Shown here one piece after another: positions 57,536-64,000 of a DNA stretch of 64,000 bases; position 1 is the first letter of the stretch; each line of letters starts with the position of its first letter. Both the position numbers and the translations under genes were made by a program. The notes under the pieces were generated by a model. It did no database searches. It was given only the letters and a program-made list of their open reading frames with translations, and was not told the DNA's origin. The DNA is from Saprospiraceae bacterium (GTDB lineage: Bacteria; Bacteroidota; Bacteroidia; Chitinophagales; Saprospiraceae): positions 1 to 64,000 of the forward strand of contig JANQHF010000101.1 of NCBI GenBank assembly GCA_028282725.1, read 5' to 3'.

Positions 57536-57991
57536 TTAACCTTCGATTTGGACAGCATCTGTTAAAAGATACATCAACCGGTTGATATCATCTGCATTCA
57601 GGTTCAGTTTTCCTTTAAGCACAACCTGCTCTGCTGTATACTCGACTGCTTCAGAGCTCTCCACCTCCATTACGGTTTCAGGACCAGCACCACCACAGAA
57701 GAAGCACATATTATATGGATAGGCAGAAAAAATGAACTCGTTATGACTCTTGTACCCCTCAACTGGGATGATATAACCCCTTACCACCACTTCTGTACCT
57801 TCTAATTCTCTTACTTGATCTGCAAAAACAGGTTTATCTATTTTAAAACCTAAAAACTCGTCATACTCTTTTTTATAGGTGATTTTGGAAAGAGTCTTCC
57901 AGACGTTTTCATCTGTTTCAGCTTCAATTTCCTGGCTCCAAAGAGGTAGTGTAAACAACAGCAAAGCCAATATTCCAAATAGTTGCTTCAT
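57536..57991 (-). CDS. Secreted protein with a CxxC motif (DUF3299-like)
   Basis: A 151-residue protein starting at MKQLFGILALLLF (57991), giving a clean signal peptide ending at LWSQ. The mature protein has an OB-fold-like strand pattern (EGTEVVVRGYIIPVEGYK, NEFIFSAYPYNM) and a CFFCGGAG segment at about residue 100, with strands VEYTAEQVVLKGKLNL behind it. This matches the general layout of small periplasmic proteins of the DUF3299 type, several of which carry a Cys pair that could bind a metal; the family assignment is tentative. It is divergent from the cysteine-controlled sulfite operon. A -7 box lies at 58024-58031. Confidence 0.6.
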   Translation of the reverse strand: MKQLFGILALLLFTLPLWSQEIEAETDENVWKTLSKITYKKEYDEFLGFKIDKPVFADQVRELEGTEVVVRGYIIPVEGYKSHNEFIFSAYPYNMCFFCGGAGPETVMEVESSEAVEYTAEQVVLKGKLNLNADDINRLMYLLTDAVQIEG

Positions 57992-58023
57992 ACTAGTCTG
58001 TTCATAATTTCGAGTAAAGCGCA

Positions 58024-58031
58024 CAAAGTTA
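58024..58031 (-). promoter_or_regulatory. Candidate -7 promoter element for the CxxC secreted protein
   Basis: The minus strand reads TAACTTTG, matching TAnnTTTG, placing a start site near 58017 and a leader of about 25 bases before ATG 57991. This also argues against the longer frame from 58024. Confidence 0.5.
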
Positions 58032-58168: not shown

Positions 58169-58199
58169 TTGTATAGTTAGAGGATGAAATATACATTTG
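58169..58199 (+). promoter_or_regulatory. Promoter of the cysteine-attenuated sulfite-reduction operon
   Basis: TTG at 58169-58171, exactly 20 bases, then TACATTTG at 58192-58199: a full match to the Bacteroidota primary promoter TTG-N19-21-TAnnTTTG. RNA should begin at about 58205-58207. This position rules out the ATG at 58184, which overlaps the promoter, as start of the first leader peptide, and leaves about 23 bases of untranslated RNA before ATG 58229. Confidence 0.85.
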
Positions 58200-58228
58200 A
58201 TCCTGTGAAAAATCGAAATAGAAATATC

Positions 58229-58258
58229 ATGTGCTGTTGCTGCTGTTGTAGCTGCTAG
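58229..58258 (+). CDS. Leader peptide 1 with six consecutive Cys codons (attenuator sensor)
   Basis: ATG at 58229 followed by TGC TGT TGC TGC TGT TGT AGC TGC and TAG, giving MCCCCCCSC. An in-frame ATG at 58184 would lengthen it to 24 residues, but it lies upstream of the predicted transcription start. Seven of eight sense codons after Met are Cys, which is what an amino-acid-sensing leader peptide needs: the ribosome would stall only when charged tRNA-Cys is scarce. A terminator begins 34 bases after its stop codon, and sulfite reductase lies behind. The peptide itself probably has no function. Confidence 0.85.
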   Translation: MCCCCCCSC

Positions 58259-58259
58259 G

Positions 58260-58326
58260 TGCTTCGATAAGTTCTATGTAAAATATTTATGGCCTTTTCG
58301 AAGTGAATTTCGAAAAGGTTTTTTTT
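58260..58326 (+). terminator. Attenuator 1: Rho-independent terminator with competing antiterminator
   Basis: Terminator: CCTTTTCGAA (58293-58302) pairs with TTCGAAAAGG (58309-58318), loop GTGAAT, then eight T (58319-58326). Antiterminator: 58260-58267 (TGCTTCGA) can pair with 58298-58305 (TCGAAGTG), occupying the left arm. Protector: ATCGAA (58212-58217) can pair with TTCGAT (58263-58268). This 1:2 / 2:3 / 3:4 scheme is the arrangement of classical amino-acid attenuators. A ribosome halted on the Cys codons would cover segment 1; one at the stop codon would cover segment 2. Confidence 0.85.
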
Positions 58327-58339
58327 GTTTTAAAGAGAT

Positions 58340-58444
58340 ATGATTCAGGAATACATCAGGAATTTTTCTATGCGTAACCAAGGTGCAAATACAACATGTA
58401 TGTGTTGTTGTTGCTGCTATTACGCTAGAAGAGGAATATCTTGA
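58340..58444 (+). CDS. Leader peptide 2 with five consecutive Cys codons (second attenuator sensor)
   Basis: An open frame with in-frame ATGs at 58340, 58370 and 58400 ending at TGA 58442-58444. It contains Cys-Met followed by TGT TGT TGT TGC TGC (58403-58417). From ATG 58400 the peptide is MCCCCCYYARRGIS, mirroring peptide 1 (M then 5-6 Cys); the longer forms give 24 or 34 residues. AAAGAG at 58332-58337 lies close to the first ATG, so the start is unsettled, but every form reads the same Cys run. It lies between the two terminators on the same transcript. Confidence 0.8.
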   Translation: MIQEYIRNFSMRNQGANTTCMCCCCCYYARRGIS

Positions 58445-58504
58445 TGGAGATAAATTAAGAGAATAAGTAGGCTCATCGGGATATTCCCGATGGGCTTTTT
58501 TTTT
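58440..58504 (+). terminator. Attenuator 2: Rho-independent terminator with competing antiterminator
   Basis: Terminator: GCTCATCGGGA (58471-58481) pairs with TCCCGATGGGC (58485-58495), 3-base loop, then nine T (58496-58504). Antiterminator: CTTGATGG (58440-58447), which overlaps the stop codon of leader 2, can pair with 58473-58480 (8 bp, three of them G-T). An upstream CATCAGG (58354-58360) can in turn pair with CTTGATG. A ribosome that finishes leader 2 would mask 58440-58447 and favour termination; one stalled at the Cys run leaves it free. Confidence 0.82.
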
Positions 58505-58522
58505 GAACAAAAAGTCGTCATC

Positions 58523-60661
58523 ATGGAAGCAATAACAGACAATGAACATATTGCCTTAGCCGATAAGGTTGATATTCTCGAATTGGAAGAGCGAATTAAA
58601 AAATTCAGGGAAGGACTGATTGATGAGGAGAGATTCAAGCTCTATCGGTTGACCAGAGGAGTTTATGGACAACGGCAATTAGGAGTACAAATGTTTCGGA
58701 TCAAGATTCCATTTGGAAGGTTGAATAGCGAACAATTAATTCGAATTGCAGATGTTTCAGACAAATATGCAACAGGCAACTTGCACATAACGACCCGACA
58801 AGATATTCAACTTCACTATGTGAAATTAGAAGACTCCTCTGAAGTCTGGAAAGAACTGGCCGCCAAAAAAATCACTGCAAGAGAGGCATGCGGGAATACG
58901 GTTAGGAATGTTACTGCTTCAGCTGAGGCCGGAATTGATCCACATGAGCCATTTGATGTATCTCCTTATGCACATGCTGTGGCACACTACTTCATGCGCA
59001 ATCCGATTTGCCAGGAAATGGGAAGAAAAATAAAAATTTCATTTTCTTCAAGTGAAAAAGATTCTGCGCTCTCCTTTATTCATGACTTTGGATTCATTCC
59101 AAAAATCAATAAAGGTCAAAGAGGGTTTAAAATTCTTGTTGGAGGTGGTTTGGGCGCACAGGCTATGTTGGCCCGGACGGCTTATGAGTTTTTACCTGAA
59201 AAGGAAATAATTGCTTTTTTGGAAGCTGCACTCAGAATCTTTGACAGGTACGGAGAACGTGAAAAACGACACAAAGCGAGGTTGAAATTTCTAATTAAAA
59301 AAATTGGCCTCGATGCTTTTCTAAAATTGGTCTCAGATGAAAAACAAGGTCTATCGCCCGAATCCTTTCAAATTTCAATTACAGATCTTTCTGATGCACC
59401 TCCTCCGGAAATATTTCAACCTGAAGTTGATGAAGTCAAAAATGTTGACAAATATCGGACATGGTTAAAGACCAACACCTTTGTACAAAAACAAAGTAAT
59501 TATAGAGGAGTATACATTAAAGTTCACTTAGGTGATCTGTCTTCGGAAAAGGCCAGATACCTGGCAAGGATTGTCAGGAAATATGCCTCCGATGACATTC
59601 GACTTTCCATCAATCAAAACATTCTCCTGAAATACATCCGTCCTGAATATCTTCCAGAGCTATTTACTGTTCTCGACGGCTATGGCTTTGCTCAGCCCGG
59701 ATATGATTCAATTGCGGACATTACGGCTTGTCCCGGAACAGATACCTGTAATCTCGGTGTCACCAATAGTACAGCCTTGTCGACTGAGCTCGAGCGGCTA
59801 CTTGAAAACGAATATTCATCACTTCTGGAAGAGCAACATATAAAGATCAAGATCAGTGGATGCATGAATGCCTGCGGACAGCACATGATCGGCAATATTG
59901 GATTTCACGGAAGTTCTATAAAGAAAAATGACAAGGTGATACCCGCCATGCAGGTCGTACTTGGTGGCGGCGTTGATCCTCAGGGACATGGATACATAGC
60001 AGATAAAATCCTTAAAGTCCCTACGAAGCGAATTCCGGATGTGGTCAGAACATTACTTGATCATTTTGAAAAGGAAGGATTTGAAAATGAATATTTCAAT
60101 AATTTCTACACAAGGCTCGGGGGTCGGAAATACTTTTATAATCTGCTCAAAATTTATACTGATGTAGATTCACTCAAAGAATCCGATCTCATAGATTGGG
60201 GGGAGGATCATTTGTACAACCAGCAGATAGGTGTAGGAGAATGTGCGGGTGTAATACTCGATGTCATTGGTACAATCATCAATGATGCCAAAGAGAAATT
60301 AGAAAAAGCTCAGAAAGAATTACAGAATCTGTCAAGCGGGGCCGCTATCTATTATGCATATTCCTCATTCGTAACCGGGGCAAAAGCTGCTTTACTCAGT
60401 GAAGATATTCACTGCAATACTCATATCAAGATCATATCTGATTTCCAGGAATATATTCTGGAAGCTGGAAAAATGAGTTTGCCGTACAATTTTCAACAAC
60501 TGGTATTATCGATTAATACAAGTCCCCCTGATCAACGATTTGCAGAGATTTATACAAAAGAGGCTGAGCAGTTCTTACAAACTGTCATTAACTGGAGAAA
60601 CCAGCAACAGGCTCCGGAGAACCTTTCCAAACCTGTCATTACAAGTTATTACAATGCATAG
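58523..60661 (+). CDS. Siroheme [4Fe-4S] sulfite reductase with extra C-terminal domain
   Basis: A 712-residue hemoprotein starting at MEAITDNEH (58523), 18 bases after attenuator 2. It has the duplicated ferredoxin-like half and siroheme-binding half of the nitrite/sulfite reductase family (TRGVYGQRQLGVQMFRIKIP, TTRQDIQLHYV). The cluster ligands are C403, C409 (ACPGTDTCNLG) and C447, C451 (SGCMNACGQH), the canonical C-x5-C-x37-C-x3-C. It reduces sulfite to sulfide with six electrons. About 150 helical residues follow the core (from GVGECAGVILDV), a HEPN-like tail known in Bacteroidota homologues. Nitrite reductase is the alternative, but the Cys leader and cysH point to sulfite. Confidence 0.9.
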   Translation: MEAITDNEHIALADKVDILELEERIKKFREGLIDEERFKLYRLTRGVYGQRQLGVQMFRIKIPFGRLNSEQLIRIADVSDKYATGNLHITTRQDIQLHYVKLEDSSEVWKELAAKKITAREACGNTVRNVTASAEAGIDPHEPFDVSPYAHAVAHYFMRNPICQEMGRKIKISFSSSEKDSALSFIHDFGFIPKINKGQRGFKILVGGGLGAQAMLARTAYEFLPEKEIIAFLEAALRIFDRYGEREKRHKARLKFLIKKIGLDAFLKLVSDEKQGLSPESFQISITDLSDAPPPEIFQPEVDEVKNVDKYRTWLKTNTFVQKQSNYRGVYIKVHLGDLSSEKARYLARIVRKYASDDIRLSINQNILLKYIRPEYLPELFTVLDGYGFAQPGYDSIADITACPGTDTCNLGVTNSTALSTELERLLENEYSSLLEEQHIKIKISGCMNACGQHMIGNIGFHGSSIKKNDKVIPAMQVVLGGGVDPQGHGYIADKILKVPTKRIPDVVRTLLDHFEKEGFENEYFNNFYTRLGGRKYFYNLLKIYTDVDSLKESDLIDWGEDHLYNQQIGVGECAGVILDVIGTIINDAKEKLEKAQKELQNLSSGAAIYYAYSSFVTGAKAALLSEDIHCNTHIKIISDFQEYILEAGKMSLPYNFQQLVLSINTSPPDQRFAEIYTKEAEQFLQTVINWRNQQQAPENLSKPVITSYYNA

Positions 60662-61418
60662 ATCAAAAGACTTTACAGTTTCACTTGTCGGAGCAGGACC
60701 AGGCGATCCGGAACTTATTACCCTTAAGGGTTTAAAGGCTATTCAATCAGCTGATGTAATCTTATATGACGCCCTGGCAACGAAAGAATTGCTTTCTAAA
60801 GCCCGGGAGGGCTGTGAATGCATCTATGTGGGAAAACGCTGTGGCCGGCATAGTCTTAAACAACAGGACATACACGCATTGATACTCCAAAAGTCAAAGA
60901 CACACCATCACTTGGTACGGCTCAAGGGAGGAAATCCATTTGTATTCGGAAGAGGTCATGAAGAAATGACTTTTCTCGAAAACAATGGTATTACAGTTAC
61001 AGTCATTCCCGGGATAAGCAGTGCGACCAGCTTGCCCTTGTTGCAGGGAATTCCTTTGACAAAACGAGACGTCTCGGAAAGTTTTTGGGTGATCACCGGA
61101 ACGACTAAAGATCATAAAATTTCGAAAGACATCTACCTCGCCGCACAGTCCAGAGCAACTGTTGTCATCCTGATGGGAATGAGGAAGTTAGAAGAAATTT
61201 GCCAGATATTTCAATCAGGAGGCAGGGCAGCTATTCCTGCCATGGTCATCAGCAAAGGTTCTACACCGGAAGAAAAAGTTGCCGTTGGCACCGTCCGGGA
61301 TATTTATAAAAAGGTTCAAGAGTTACAATTAGAATCTCCCGGTCTGATTATAATCGGAGACGTTGTGGGACTTAAGAAAAAATCACTCATCAATCAGGCA
61401 ATAGAAACATGGCTATGA
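60654..61418 (+). CDS. cobA: Uroporphyrinogen-III C-methyltransferase
   Basis: A 254-residue SUMT from ATG 60654, overlapping the sulfite-reductase stop by 8 bases; the longer frame from 60540 lies inside that gene. Signature segments: VSLVGAGPGDPELITLKG (SAM site), VILYDAL, VRLKGGNPFVFGRG and PGISSATSLPLLQGIPLT. It adds two methyl groups to uroporphyrinogen III giving precorrin-2, the first committed step of siroheme, the cofactor of the preceding enzyme. Confidence 0.94.
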   Translation: MHRSKDFTVSLVGAGPGDPELITLKGLKAIQSADVILYDALATKELLSKAREGCECIYVGKRCGRHSLKQQDIHALILQKSKTHHHLVRLKGGNPFVFGRGHEEMTFLENNGITVTVIPGISSATSLPLLQGIPLTKRDVSESFWVITGTTKDHKISKDIYLAAQSRATVVILMGMRKLEEICQIFQSGGRAAIPAMVISKGSTPEEKVAVGTVRDIYKKVQELQLESPGLIIIGDVVGLKKKSLINQAIETWL

Positions 61419-62002
61419 CCCAAGATCAAAATAATCTCTATCCCGTATTTTTAAAACTCTGCAACTTGAAATTGCTCATCGTTGGTGCAGGAAATGTAGG
61501 ATTTGAAAAATTGTCATTTCTTCTGAAGAGTAGTCCGGATGCCAATATTTCAGTCATTGCCAAGAACTTTTCAGACCAGGTACAGAATCTCATTGCTGAT
61601 AACGATCGGATAGAAATTATTGAAAAGGCATTCACATCCACTGACGTCATTGGGCATGATATCATCATTGCCGCAACAAATAATGAAGATGTAAATGCAG
61701 AAATCTATGCTGCAGCCAAGCATCACAATAAAGTTGTAAATGTCGCTGACACTCCTCATTTATGTGACTTCTATATGGGATCCATCATTACCAGGGGAGA
61801 TCTAAAGATAGCGATTTCGACAAATGGAAAGTCCCCAACATTTTCTAAAAGATTCAGACAATTATTGGAATCCATTTTGCCTGTCGAATCCCACAGTCTC
61901 GTGAATAATTTGAAACTGATCAGGGATCGGCTCGAGGGAAATTTTGAATACAAGGTGAAGGAATTGAACCGTATCACAAAAACGCTTCTTACATATGAAT
62001 GA
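61409..62002 (+). CDS. Precorrin-2 dehydrogenase / sirohydrochlorin ferrochelatase (Met8/CysG N-terminal type)
   Basis: A 197-residue protein. The NAD-binding start LKLLIVGAGNVGFEKLSFLL, the central AATNNEDVNAEIYAAAK and NVADTPHLCDFYMGSIITRGDLKIAISTNGKSPTFS (quoted in two parts: NVADTPHLCDFY and ISTNGKSPTFS) match the N-terminal half of CysG and yeast Met8p. It oxidises precorrin-2 to sirohydrochlorin and may insert Fe2+ to finish siroheme. The gene overlaps cobA by 10 bases; in many bacteria the two are fused as cysG, here they are separate. Confidence 0.92.
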   Translation: MAMTQDQNNLYPVFLKLCNLKLLIVGAGNVGFEKLSFLLKSSPDANISVIAKNFSDQVQNLIADNDRIEIIEKAFTSTDVIGHDIIIAATNNEDVNAEIYAAAKHHNKVVNVADTPHLCDFYMGSIITRGDLKIAISTNGKSPTFSKRFRQLLESILPVESHSLVNNLKLIRDRLEGNFEYKVKELNRITKTLLTYE

Positions 62003-62695: not shown

Positions 62696-63706
62696 ATGAT
62701 TAAAACAGACATTTTAATAGTAGGTGCCGGGCCTGTAGGTCTCTTCACTGTCTTTGAGGCTGGTTTGCTAAAGTTGCGATGCCATCTTGTCGACGCCTTG
62801 CCGATTCCAGGAGGACAATTGGCAGAGATTTATCCCAAGAAGCCAATTTATGATATTCCGGGATACCCGAGTATCCTCGCCGGAGATCTGGTCGATAATC
62901 TGATGAAACAGATCGAGCCTTTCCAACCTAAATTTACCCTGGGTGAACGTGTGGAGTCACTTGTCCAGGTTGAAGACAAGTTGTATGAAGTTCAGACCAA
63001 CAAAGGGACGAAGATACAGGCTCCTGTCATTGCCATAGCAGCTGGTCTTGGATGTTTCGAACCCCGAAAACCACCTATAGAAGATCTGGAAAAATATGAG
63101 GACAAGGGTGTTGATTACATTATAAAGGATCCCGAAAAATTCAGAGATAAAAAATTATTGATAGCAGGAGGAGGAGATTCTGCTTTGGACTGGACAATTG
63201 AATTGTCTGATATCGCTTCGGAAGTTACACTGATACACCGCCGGACATCCTTCAAAGGAGCCCTGGATTCAGTGGATAAAGTGCTCGAGCTTGCCAGGGC
63301 AAAAAAGGTAAACCTGATCACTGAGGCTCAGGCAATAGGAGTAGGCGGAAATGGGGTGCTCAGAGAAGTGAGGATCAAAAGCAAGCAAAATGGTGAGTTT
63401 ATCCATTATGTGGATAATTTCATCCCCTTATTCGGTCTGTCACCGAAACTTGGCCCAATCGCAGAATGGGGTTTGAACATTAAACGAAGCTCTATCACAG
63501 TTGATCCATCGGACTATAGCACGGGAGTGCCGGGTATTTATGCGATCGGCGATATCAATGATTATCCTGGAAAATTAAAATTAATTCTGTGTGGATTCCA
63601 TGAAGGAACTTTAATGGTTCAATCTGCTTTTAAATACATATACCCTGAAGCTAAATTGAGTTTCAAGTATACTACGGTATCCGGAGTCAATGGTTTTGAG
63701 GATTGA
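62696..63706 (+). CDS. Ferredoxin--NADP+ reductase (thioredoxin-reductase-like type)
   Basis: A 336-residue flavoprotein with FAD motif ILIVGAGPVGLFTVFEAGL, the NADPH motif LLIAGGGDSALDWTIEL near residue 157 and GIYAIGDINDYPGK at the end. It lacks the CxxC of thioredoxin reductases, which identifies the YumC-type ferredoxin/flavodoxin reductases. Between it and cysH are only 23 bases. Together with the ferredoxin that follows it forms the NADPH-to-ferredoxin electron path needed by a ferredoxin-type sulfite reductase. Confidence 0.92.
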   Translation: MIKTDILIVGAGPVGLFTVFEAGLLKLRCHLVDALPIPGGQLAEIYPKKPIYDIPGYPSILAGDLVDNLMKQIEPFQPKFTLGERVESLVQVEDKLYEVQTNKGTKIQAPVIAIAAGLGCFEPRKPPIEDLEKYEDKGVDYIIKDPEKFRDKKLLIAGGGDSALDWTIELSDIASEVTLIHRRTSFKGALDSVDKVLELARAKKVNLITEAQAIGVGGNGVLREVRIKSKQNGEFIHYVDNFIPLFGLSPKLGPIAEWGLNIKRSSITVDPSDYSTGVPGIYAIGDINDYPGKLKLILCGFHEGTLMVQSAFKYIYPEAKLSFKYTTVSGVNGFED

Positions 63707-63735
63707 AAAAGTTATTCAGATAAAGTTTTGAGAAA

Positions 63736-63767
63736 AGGCGGAGCATTTACCATGCTTCGCTTCTTTT
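63736..63767 (+). terminator. Possible intra-operon terminator before the ferredoxin gene
   Basis: An 11-bp stem (63736-63746 against 63752-63762, two G-T pairs) with loop TTACC, followed by TTCTTTT. It lies 30 bases after the FNR stop and before the ferredoxin ATG at 63782, so it may lower ferredoxin transcription or end the upstream unit. Confidence 0.6.
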
Positions 63768-63781
63768 ATGAACATTGGATT

Positions 63782-64000
63782 ATGATAGACAATGAAATAC
63801 AGTTGACTGTGATTGACAGGGATGATAAAGAACATGTGATCAATGCCCCAACAGATATGAATCTGAATATCATGGAAATCTGCAAGGCTTCAGATTTGCC
63901 GATTGAAGGGACTTGTGGGGGAATGGCCTTATGCGCCTCCTGTCACGTCTATGTCCTCTCCGATCATGAATTGCAGCAGCCATCAGAAGATGAAGAGGAC
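63782..64000 (+). CDS. 2Fe-2S ferredoxin, adrenodoxin type (cut by window end)
   Basis: The first 73 codons from ATG 63782 are in the window. An upstream in-frame ATG at 63752 lies inside the terminator stem and is less likely. The iron-sulfur motif EGTCGGMALCASCHVYV gives three of the four cluster Cys with the adrenodoxin-type C-x5-C-x2-C spacing, as in ISC/hydroxylation ferredoxins; the fourth Cys would be beyond 64000. It would carry electrons from the FNR to sulfite reductase. Confidence 0.88.
   Translation, partial: MIDNEIQLTVIDRDDKEHVINAPTDMNLNIMEICKASDLPIEGTCGGMALCASCHVYVLSDHELQQPSEDEED

What the first reader, a model, noticed from the sequence alone, without database searches (positions are those of the whole stretch)
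58169..58522. Tandem cysteine-codon attenuators in front of a sulfite-reduction operon
Seen directly: a consensus promoter, then two tiny frames with six and five consecutive Cys codons, each followed by a strong stem-loop with 8-9 T, then sulfite reductase, siroheme genes and cysH. Established: runs of regulatory codons plus terminator/antiterminator pairs are the mark of ribosome-mediated attenuation (trp, his, leu operons), and poly-Cys short frames have been shown to act as cysteine-responsive attenuators in mycobacteria. Inference: cysteine shortage stalls the ribosome and lets polymerase pass both terminators, so the pathway is made only when needed. Two in series would multiply the regulation range. 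I know of no described tandem Cys attenuator in Bacteroidota.
Basis: partly seen in the sequence, partly recalled or inferred. Interest (0 to 1): 0.95.

Follow-up and report, generated by a model that had tools for sequence, protein, structure and literature searches.

The report
Two-stage cysteine attenuator before sulfite reductase
In front of its sulfite-reduction genes this bacterium carries two tiny frames full of cysteine codons, each followed by a likely transcription stop signal that is predicted to fold in a second way too, and many related bacteria carry the same pair; they would act as two brakes in series that likely release the genes only when cysteine runs short, a layout for which we found no earlier report.

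Summary
Confirmed and extended. The leader 58169-58522 has a 9-of-9 Bacteroidota-type promoter (TTG-N20-TACATTTG) and two short frames with 6 and 5 consecutive Cys codons. Each is followed by a T-tailed hairpin and has an antiterminator segment that can pair with the hairpin's 5' arm (both p=0.01 against shuffles). Sulfite-reductase, siroheme and cysH genes follow. Correction: frame 1 probably starts at GTG 58205, 5 nt after the -7 box (near-leaderless); ATG 58184 lies inside the promoter.

Of 81 loci (window included), 19 have two complete units, 10 one, 6 are atypical, 41 none, 5 truncated. The alternative pairing beats shuffles (p<0.05) in 36 of 51 units and 14 of 20 units of a second sample. 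Own partners beat exchanged ones in 18 of 19 tandem loci and 4 of 5 further ones. In the own genome 2 of 19 Cys runs look like this, both here.

Best reading: ribosome-mediated transcription attenuation by lack of cysteinyl-tRNA, twice in series. Nothing was tested at the bench. Limits: the terminator wins at folding equilibrium, and some Pedobacter relatives keep the terminator with 1-2 Cys codons. New variant of a known kind.

The parts
58169..58199 (+). promoter of Bacteroidota type: TTG 58169-58171, 20-nt spacer, TACATTTG 58192-58199; predicted start of transcription about 58204
   Evidence: 9 of 9 letters; aligned with L009 and L028; -7 box at -12 to -5 in F. psychrophilum (PMC9723704, passage)
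58205..58258 (+). uORF1, predicted start GTG 58205 (near-leaderless): MKNRNRNIMCCCCCCSC; alternative start ATG 58229; Cys run 58232-58249
   Evidence: GTG/GTG/ATG 5/5/4 nt after the -7 box in window/L009/L028
58260..58272 (+). antiterminator segment of unit 1 (pairs with 58293-58305)
   Evidence: dG -11.4, p 0.01 against 300 shuffles
58291..58326 (+). terminator 1: hairpin 58291-58320 and 8 T to 58326
   Evidence: -13.3 kcal/mol
58340..58444 (+). uORF2: MIQEYIRNFSMRNQGANTTCMCCCCCYYARRGIS from ATG 58340 (or inner ATG 58370 or 58400); Cys run 58403-58417
58435..58448 (+). antiterminator segment of unit 2 (pairs with 58472-58484); overlaps the end of uORF2
   Evidence: dG -13.2, p 0.01 against 300 shuffles
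58469..58504 (+). terminator 2: hairpin 58469-58497 and 9 T to 58504
   Evidence: -19.7 kcal/mol
58523..60661 (+). NIR_SIR-family reductase, 712 aa, taken as sulfite reductase from its company
   Evidence: PF01077, PF03460; no NCBIfam model at its cut-off
60657..61418 (+). uroporphyrinogen-III C-methyltransferase (siroheme)
   Evidence: NF004790, TIGR01469 over cut-off
61409..62002 (+). precorrin-2 dehydrogenase-like protein (siroheme)
   Evidence: TIGR01470 over cut-off, PF13241
61995..62672 (+). cysH-like PAPS/APS reductase
   Evidence: NF002537 over cut-off, PF01507

Best explanation
The leader holds two cysteine-codon attenuators in series, each made of a short frame with a run of Cys codons, a predicted alternative (antiterminator) pairing and a terminator-like hairpin with a T run, and it would likely let RNA polymerase reach the sulfite-reductase operon only when charged cysteinyl-tRNA is scarce. 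Shown by sequence and comparison: the promoter match, the Cys runs, both hairpins, the mutually exclusive pairing of each hairpin's 5' arm with the stretch between Cys run and hairpin, and the conservation of these in many relatives. Inferred: a ribosome starts frame 1 almost at the 5' end of the RNA. With cysteine plentiful it runs to the stop codon and covers the antiterminator segment, so the terminator forms and transcription ends. With cysteine short it stalls in the Cys run, the antiterminator forms before the terminator's 3' arm is made, and polymerase passes. The same decision is then taken again at unit 2, so that leakage would be the product of two leaks and the range of regulation would widen.
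For: Cys runs, hairpins and T runs. Promoter (over 32 leaders a 9/9 promoter in 6 against 0.29 in shuffles). Pairing of antiterminator segment with terminator arm better than shuffles (p<0.05) in 36 of 51 units, mean z -2.44, and in 14 of 20 units of a second sample, mean z -2.65. Covariation: cognate mean dG -13.5 against -8.6 permuted, 0 of 20,000 permutations as good; -14.0 against -9.7, 0 of 20,000. Own partner better than exchanged in 18 of 19 tandem loci and 4 of 5 further ones. Before the 3' arm exists, the 5' arm is predicted paired upstream at 0.78 and 0.82 with the ribosome at the first Cys codon and at 0.09 and 0.22 at the stop codon. The whole-genome check finds only this leader. 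Cys codons mix TGT and TGC (188 and 102; one codon only in 3 of 51 runs), as selection for the amino acid, not for a DNA repeat, would leave. Cognate pathway downstream.
Against: No experiment. Once the 3' arm exists the terminator wins at equilibrium in every ribosome state (0.94-0.98 in the window), so the decision must be kinetic. With no ribosome the antiterminator is still predicted (0.75, 0.81), unlike the trp textbook case. The stall-versus-stop contrast (49 of 51 units) is partly geometric. The 1:2 pairing is better than shuffles in only 17 of 51 units, and not in unit 1 of the window (p 0.80). 15 of 51 and 6 of 20 units miss p<0.05 for the 2:3 pairing. 41 of 81 loci have no unit, among them Roseivirga and Neolewinella. 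Pedobacter L068, L080 and L074 keep the terminator with 2, 2 and 1 Cys codons. Pontibacter L039 and L042 keep Cys frames without convincing terminators.
Confidence: 0.85

Rival explanations
1. The poly-Cys frames act on translation of the next gene, as reported for mycobacteria, and the hairpins are incidental or only end stray transcripts.
For: Poly-Cys leaderless short ORFs are described as cysteine-responsive translational attenuators in Mycobacterium smegmatis (passages of PMC9031893, and PMC13236596). Pontibacter L039 and L042 have two Cys frames without convincing terminators.
Against: Hairpins with T runs follow the Cys run at a steady distance (run end to stem: median 57 nt, middle half 52-61), and the intervening stretch covaries with the hairpin's 5' arm. 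A translational switch does not need that.
Confidence: 0.08
2. Only one of the two units regulates; the other is a relic of a local duplication or a plain terminator.
For: Single-unit leaders exist (10 of 81; 11 of 32). In 4 of 19 tandem loci unit 2 is the best match of its own unit 1 among the 19 unit-2 sequences, as after local duplication.
Against: Both units of the window keep every part, and their own partners fit better than exchanged ones (-24.6 against -20.2). The window's clade of 6 is all tandem (SH-aLRT 100). The window's two units are not alike (rank 12 of 19).
Confidence: 0.12
3. The nascent poly-Cys peptide itself is the sensor (of zinc, copper, sulfide or redox state) and stalls the ribosome when it binds or oxidises.
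For: Cys runs are chemically able to do this (general knowledge). The run is followed by the switch in either case.
Against: Apart from the run the peptides differ between genomes, and the run length varies from 3 to 11 Cys. The genes downstream make cysteine, not metal or redox defence.
Confidence: 0.05
4. Chance: TGY-rich repeats beside unrelated terminators.
For: TGYTGY runs occur elsewhere in the genome (17 other runs of at least 4).
Against: None of those 17 is a short started frame outside long frames with a terminator; the detector finds about 0.6 expected against 51 counted units.
Confidence: 0.01

Closest known systems
Classical ribosome-mediated attenuators (trp, his, leu operons of enterobacteria; recalled)
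   Same: Short frame with runs of the regulated amino acid's codons, terminator, competing antiterminator, cognate pathway downstream
   Different: Cysteine; two complete units in series; first frame predicted near-leaderless; no 1:2 guard predicted in the window
Mycobacterial poly-Cys leaderless short ORFs (Canestrari 2020; paper not held, seen only through passages of PMC9094748, PMC9031893, PMC13236596)
   Same: Runs of Cys codons in a short frame before sulfur genes; (near-)leaderless start predicted for uORF1 here
   Different: There the cys leaders have no conserved terminator hairpins (PMC1262725, passages) and control is described as translational; here each frame has its own intrinsic terminator and antiterminator; another phylum
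Tandem attenuators of Salmonella mgtCBR (PMC3641672, abstract and passages)
   Same: Two short ORFs in one leader, each with its own control
   Different: There the two respond to different signals (ATP, proline); here both carry Cys runs, so the same signal twice, each with its own terminator
Leader-peptide candidates of Bacteroidota (PMC9723704; PMC7366714; passages)
   Same: Same phylum; attenuation suspected for amino-acid operons or long 5' UTRs
   Different: Cysteine and tandem units are not named in the passages seen

Membership tests
Ribosome-mediated leader-peptide transcription attenuator | short frame with a run of regulatory codons before the cognate operon | tested here: met
   6 and 5 Cys codons before sulfite reductase-siroheme-cysH
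Ribosome-mediated leader-peptide transcription attenuator | intrinsic terminator after the frame | tested here: met
   T-tailed hairpins, -13.3 and -19.7 kcal/mol; termination itself not measured
Ribosome-mediated leader-peptide transcription attenuator | antiterminator exclusive with the terminator | tested here: met
   (prediction with covariation)
Ribosome-mediated leader-peptide transcription attenuator | 1:2 hairpin that frees or sequesters the antiterminator segment | tested here: inconclusive
   17 of 51 units p<0.05; window unit 2 p 0.007, unit 1 p 0.80; no guarding predicted in the window
Ribosome-mediated leader-peptide transcription attenuator | readthrough rises when the amino acid is short | not testable with these tools
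   needs an experiment
Mycobacterial poly-Cys leaderless short ORF | poly-Cys run near the stop codon | tested here: met
   uORF1 ends with the run; uORF2 has 8 codons after it
Mycobacterial poly-Cys leaderless short ORF | leaderless start | tested here: inconclusive
   uORF1 start 5 nt after the -7 box, transcription start not mapped; uORF2 lies inside the leader and is not leaderless
Mycobacterial poly-Cys leaderless short ORF | no conserved terminator hairpin (PMC1262725) | tested here: not met
   both frames are followed by terminators
T-box or sulfur riboswitch (SAM and others) | match to the curated RNA family | tested here: not met
   no Rfam 15 family at gathering score in the window

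The most novel reading that the evidence does not exclude
A conserved two-stage, same-signal attenuator: two cysteine-sensing brakes in series on one operon, kept in several Bacteroidota lineages because squaring the leak gives a sharper and tighter switch than one brake can. The first frame is read from the very 5' end of the RNA (leaderless), the second by ordinary initiation inside the leader. It would also show that ribosomes follow RNA polymerase closely in this phylum.
Probability: 0.5. Interest if true: 0.82.

Novelty: new variant of a known kind. Interest (0 to 1): 0.72.

Why it matters
It would give a phylum with few described amino-acid regulators a simple RNA-level control of sulfate assimilation. 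It would be a natural case of two same-signal attenuators in series, whose dose response can be set against the single-unit leaders of relatives. Classical attenuation needs a ribosome close behind RNA polymerase, so this conserved design makes transcription-translation coupling in Bacteroidota directly testable.

Tried and rejected
E. coli-type promoter in the leader: none found. Known RNA family: none. Simple DNA repeat: rejected, because TGT and TGC are mixed. A wider cysteine regulon: in the own genome no other run of at least 4 Cys codons has this layout, and no frame with 3 Cys and a possible start was found before cysD or the two best cysK-like genes in the stretches held (one Cys-rich frame lies inside the second cysK-like gene; cysD is split over two contig ends, so its full surroundings were not seen). 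Spread by plasmids: no match of the leader in the plasmid collection.

Rows dropped before counts: of 55 unit rows with a hairpin, four were left out of the 51 (a second run in the same L010 frame; two L039 rows and one L042 row with weak or distant hairpins). L036 and L041 had 2 and 0 nt upstream. In the second sample 2 of 34 loci were cut at a contig end (L197, L211), and 7 of the other 32 are loci already seen, judged by equal contig length; these 7 were left out. L054 counts as 'none' although its frame holds spaced Cys codons that the detector misses (my reading of the sequence).

Literature: the listings of nine searches showed no tandem Cys attenuator and no Cys attenuator in Bacteroidota; they cover openly licensed PMC papers only, and the listings are capped. 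Canestrari 2020 is not held and Lopatovskaya 2010 was seen only as a reference; either may hold relevant cases. No paper was read whole; abstracts and passages only.

Full report
What is there. The leader lies between a divergent gene (57536-58024, minus strand) and a sulfite-reductase operon on the plus strand. In order it holds: a Bacteroidota-type promoter, TTG (58169-58171), 20 nt, TACATTTG (58192-58199), all nine defining letters matched; a short frame with six consecutive Cys codons (58232-58249) that ends at 58258; a hairpin at 58291-58320 with 8 T; a second short frame with five consecutive Cys codons (58403-58417) that ends at 58444; a hairpin at 58469-58497 with 9 T; and the reductase start at 58523. 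No Rfam family matches the window at gathering score.

Start of frame 1. The longest reading of frame 1 begins at ATG 58184, but this lies between the two promoter boxes. A passage of PMC9723704 puts the -7 box of flavobacterial promoters at -12 to -5, so transcription should begin at about 58204, and the next in-frame start is GTG 58205. The two nearest relatives have the same layout: L009 has GTG 5 nt after TAGTTTTA and L028 has ATG 4 nt after TAGTTTTG. Frame 1 is therefore predicted to be leaderless or nearly so. In the 39 leaders the distance is 4-5 nt in 7 and 7-10 nt in 6; in the other 26 it is longer (16) or no promoter reached 8 of 9 (10), so this is no general rule. Over 32 leaders a 9/9 promoter occurs in 6, against 0.29 in shuffles (highest 3), and one with at least 8/9 and spacing 20 in 18, against 1.85 (highest 6).

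Is it chance? In the 5.06-Mb genome 19 distinct runs of at least four Cys codons were found. Two lie in a short frame with a start codon, outside long frames, and before a terminator; both are here. In three genomes of the same family searched for five-codon runs, the only hit of this layout was again a reductase leader (L158 of G026). Outside the leaders of 81 loci the detector gave 17 hits in 1,580,704 strand-bases, none with more than four Cys. By my arithmetic that is about 0.6 expected in the leaders, against 51 units counted there (after dropping four of 55 rows).

The switch. For each unit I asked how well the stretch between Cys run and terminator pairs with the terminator's 5' arm plus loop. 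In the window both units do better than 298 of 300 shuffles (dG -11.4 and -13.2 kcal/mol). Over 51 units 36 reach p<0.05, mean z -2.44. In 20 units of a second sample of whole genomes 14 do, mean z -2.65. The letters of these pairs differ from genome to genome, yet each antiterminator fits its own terminator: mean cognate energy -13.5 against -8.6 with permuted partners, 0 of 20,000 permutations as good; in the second sample -14.0 against -9.7, again 0 of 20,000. Within a leader, own partners beat exchanged ones in 18 of 19 tandem loci (not in L010) and in 4 of 5 further ones (not in L184). Related loci are not independent, so these counts overstate the number of separate events. The 1:2 pairing has weaker support: 17 of 51 units, and not unit 1 of the window.

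Ribosome positions. Before the terminator's 3' arm is made, the 5' arm is predicted to be paired upstream at 0.78 (unit 1) and 0.82 (unit 2) with the ribosome at the first Cys codon, and at 0.09 and 0.22 with it at the stop codon. Stall exceeds stop in 49 of 51 units, but this is partly geometric. Two results differ from the trp textbook case: without a ribosome the antiterminator is still predicted (0.75, 0.81), and once the 3' arm exists the terminator wins in every state (0.94-0.98 in the window), so the decision has to be kinetic.

Relatives. With the window there are 81 loci: 19 with two complete units, 10 with one, 6 atypical, 41 with none and 5 with under 400 nt upstream (two of these five, L014 and L037, show one unit). 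The window's clade of 6 is all tandem (SH-aLRT 100). Tandem leaders also occur in other Saprospirales, in L023 (Chitinophagales) and L024, and in L062 (Adhaeribacter, Hymenobacteraceae). The second sample (149 genomes of the order, 35 with the reductase including the own) gave, in 32 usable loci, 7 with two units, 11 with one, 1 (L210) with one unit and a second Cys frame lacking a clear terminator, and 13 with none; 7 of the 32 had been seen before. Leaders without units include Roseivirga and Neolewinella. Pedobacter L068 and L080 keep the terminator with 2 Cys codons and L074 with 1 (the last by my reading). Pontibacter L039 and L042 keep Cys frames without convincing terminators.

What it controls. 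The genes are a NIR_SIR-family reductase, uroporphyrinogen-III methyltransferase, precorrin-2 dehydrogenase and a PAPS/APS reductase, followed by a thioredoxin-reductase-like flavoprotein and a 2Fe-2S ferredoxin, perhaps its electron supply. That the reductase acts on sulfite is inferred from this company, since no NCBIfam model reached its cut-off for it. A cysD gene, split over two contig ends, and a cysteine synthase lie elsewhere in the genome, without such a leader in the stretches held.

What is known. Passages of PMC1262725 describe Cys-run leader peptides before cys operons of mycobacteria, without conserved terminators. Passages of PMC13236596, PMC9094748 and PMC9031893 cite Canestrari 2020 for poly-Cys leaderless short ORFs that respond to cysteine; two of the three describe the control as translational. 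[quoted passage not shown] PMC2965389 (passages) says that by 2010 leader-peptide systems were, to its authors' knowledge, shown only in Proteobacteria and Actinobacteria, and adds one in bacilli. PMC9723704 and PMC7366714 (passages) suspect leader-peptide attenuation in two Bacteroidota, without naming cysteine there. The listings of nine searches showed no tandem Cys attenuator and none in this phylum, within the openly licensed papers held. I therefore file it as a new variant of ribosome-mediated attenuation.

Shown and inferred. Shown: the parts, the alternative pairing as a prediction with covariation, the conservation, the gene context. Inferred: translation of the frames, stalling, response to cysteine, the kinetic decision, the gain from two units.

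Noticed in passing
window 62696-64000: Directly after cysH come a thioredoxin-reductase/FNR-like flavoprotein (62696-63706) and a 2Fe-2S ferredoxin cut by the window end (63728-), with gaps of about 20 nt: perhaps the electron supply of the reductase in one operon.
   Followed up: partly
window 60122-60658 (residues 534-712 of the reductase): About 180 C-terminal residues of the reductase lie beyond the NIR_SIR matches and have no Pfam or NCBIfam match of their own.
   Followed up: no
L039, L042 leaders (Pontibacter): Two Cys-rich short frames each before the reductase, one with 6-7 consecutive Cys codons, but no convincing terminator; control there may work otherwise.
   Followed up: partly
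L068, L073, L074, L080 leaders (Pedobacter): TATATTTG stands 4 nt before the ATG of a short frame with 1-2 Cys codons, then a terminator: a near-leaderless frame with a decayed Cys run (L074 and L080 by eye).
   Followed up: partly
L050, L054, L078 leaders: The short frames mix Trp and Cys codons (such as CWFWCC, CWCC), perhaps a second amino-acid input.
   Followed up: no
L038, L040 leaders (Flexithrix and a relative): A strong terminator comes before the single Cys frame and only a weak hairpin after it.
   Followed up: no
L015, L023, L027, L053 leaders: Unit 1 resembles unit 2 of its own leader more than any other of the 19 unit-2 sequences, which suggests local duplication or exchange.
   Followed up: partly
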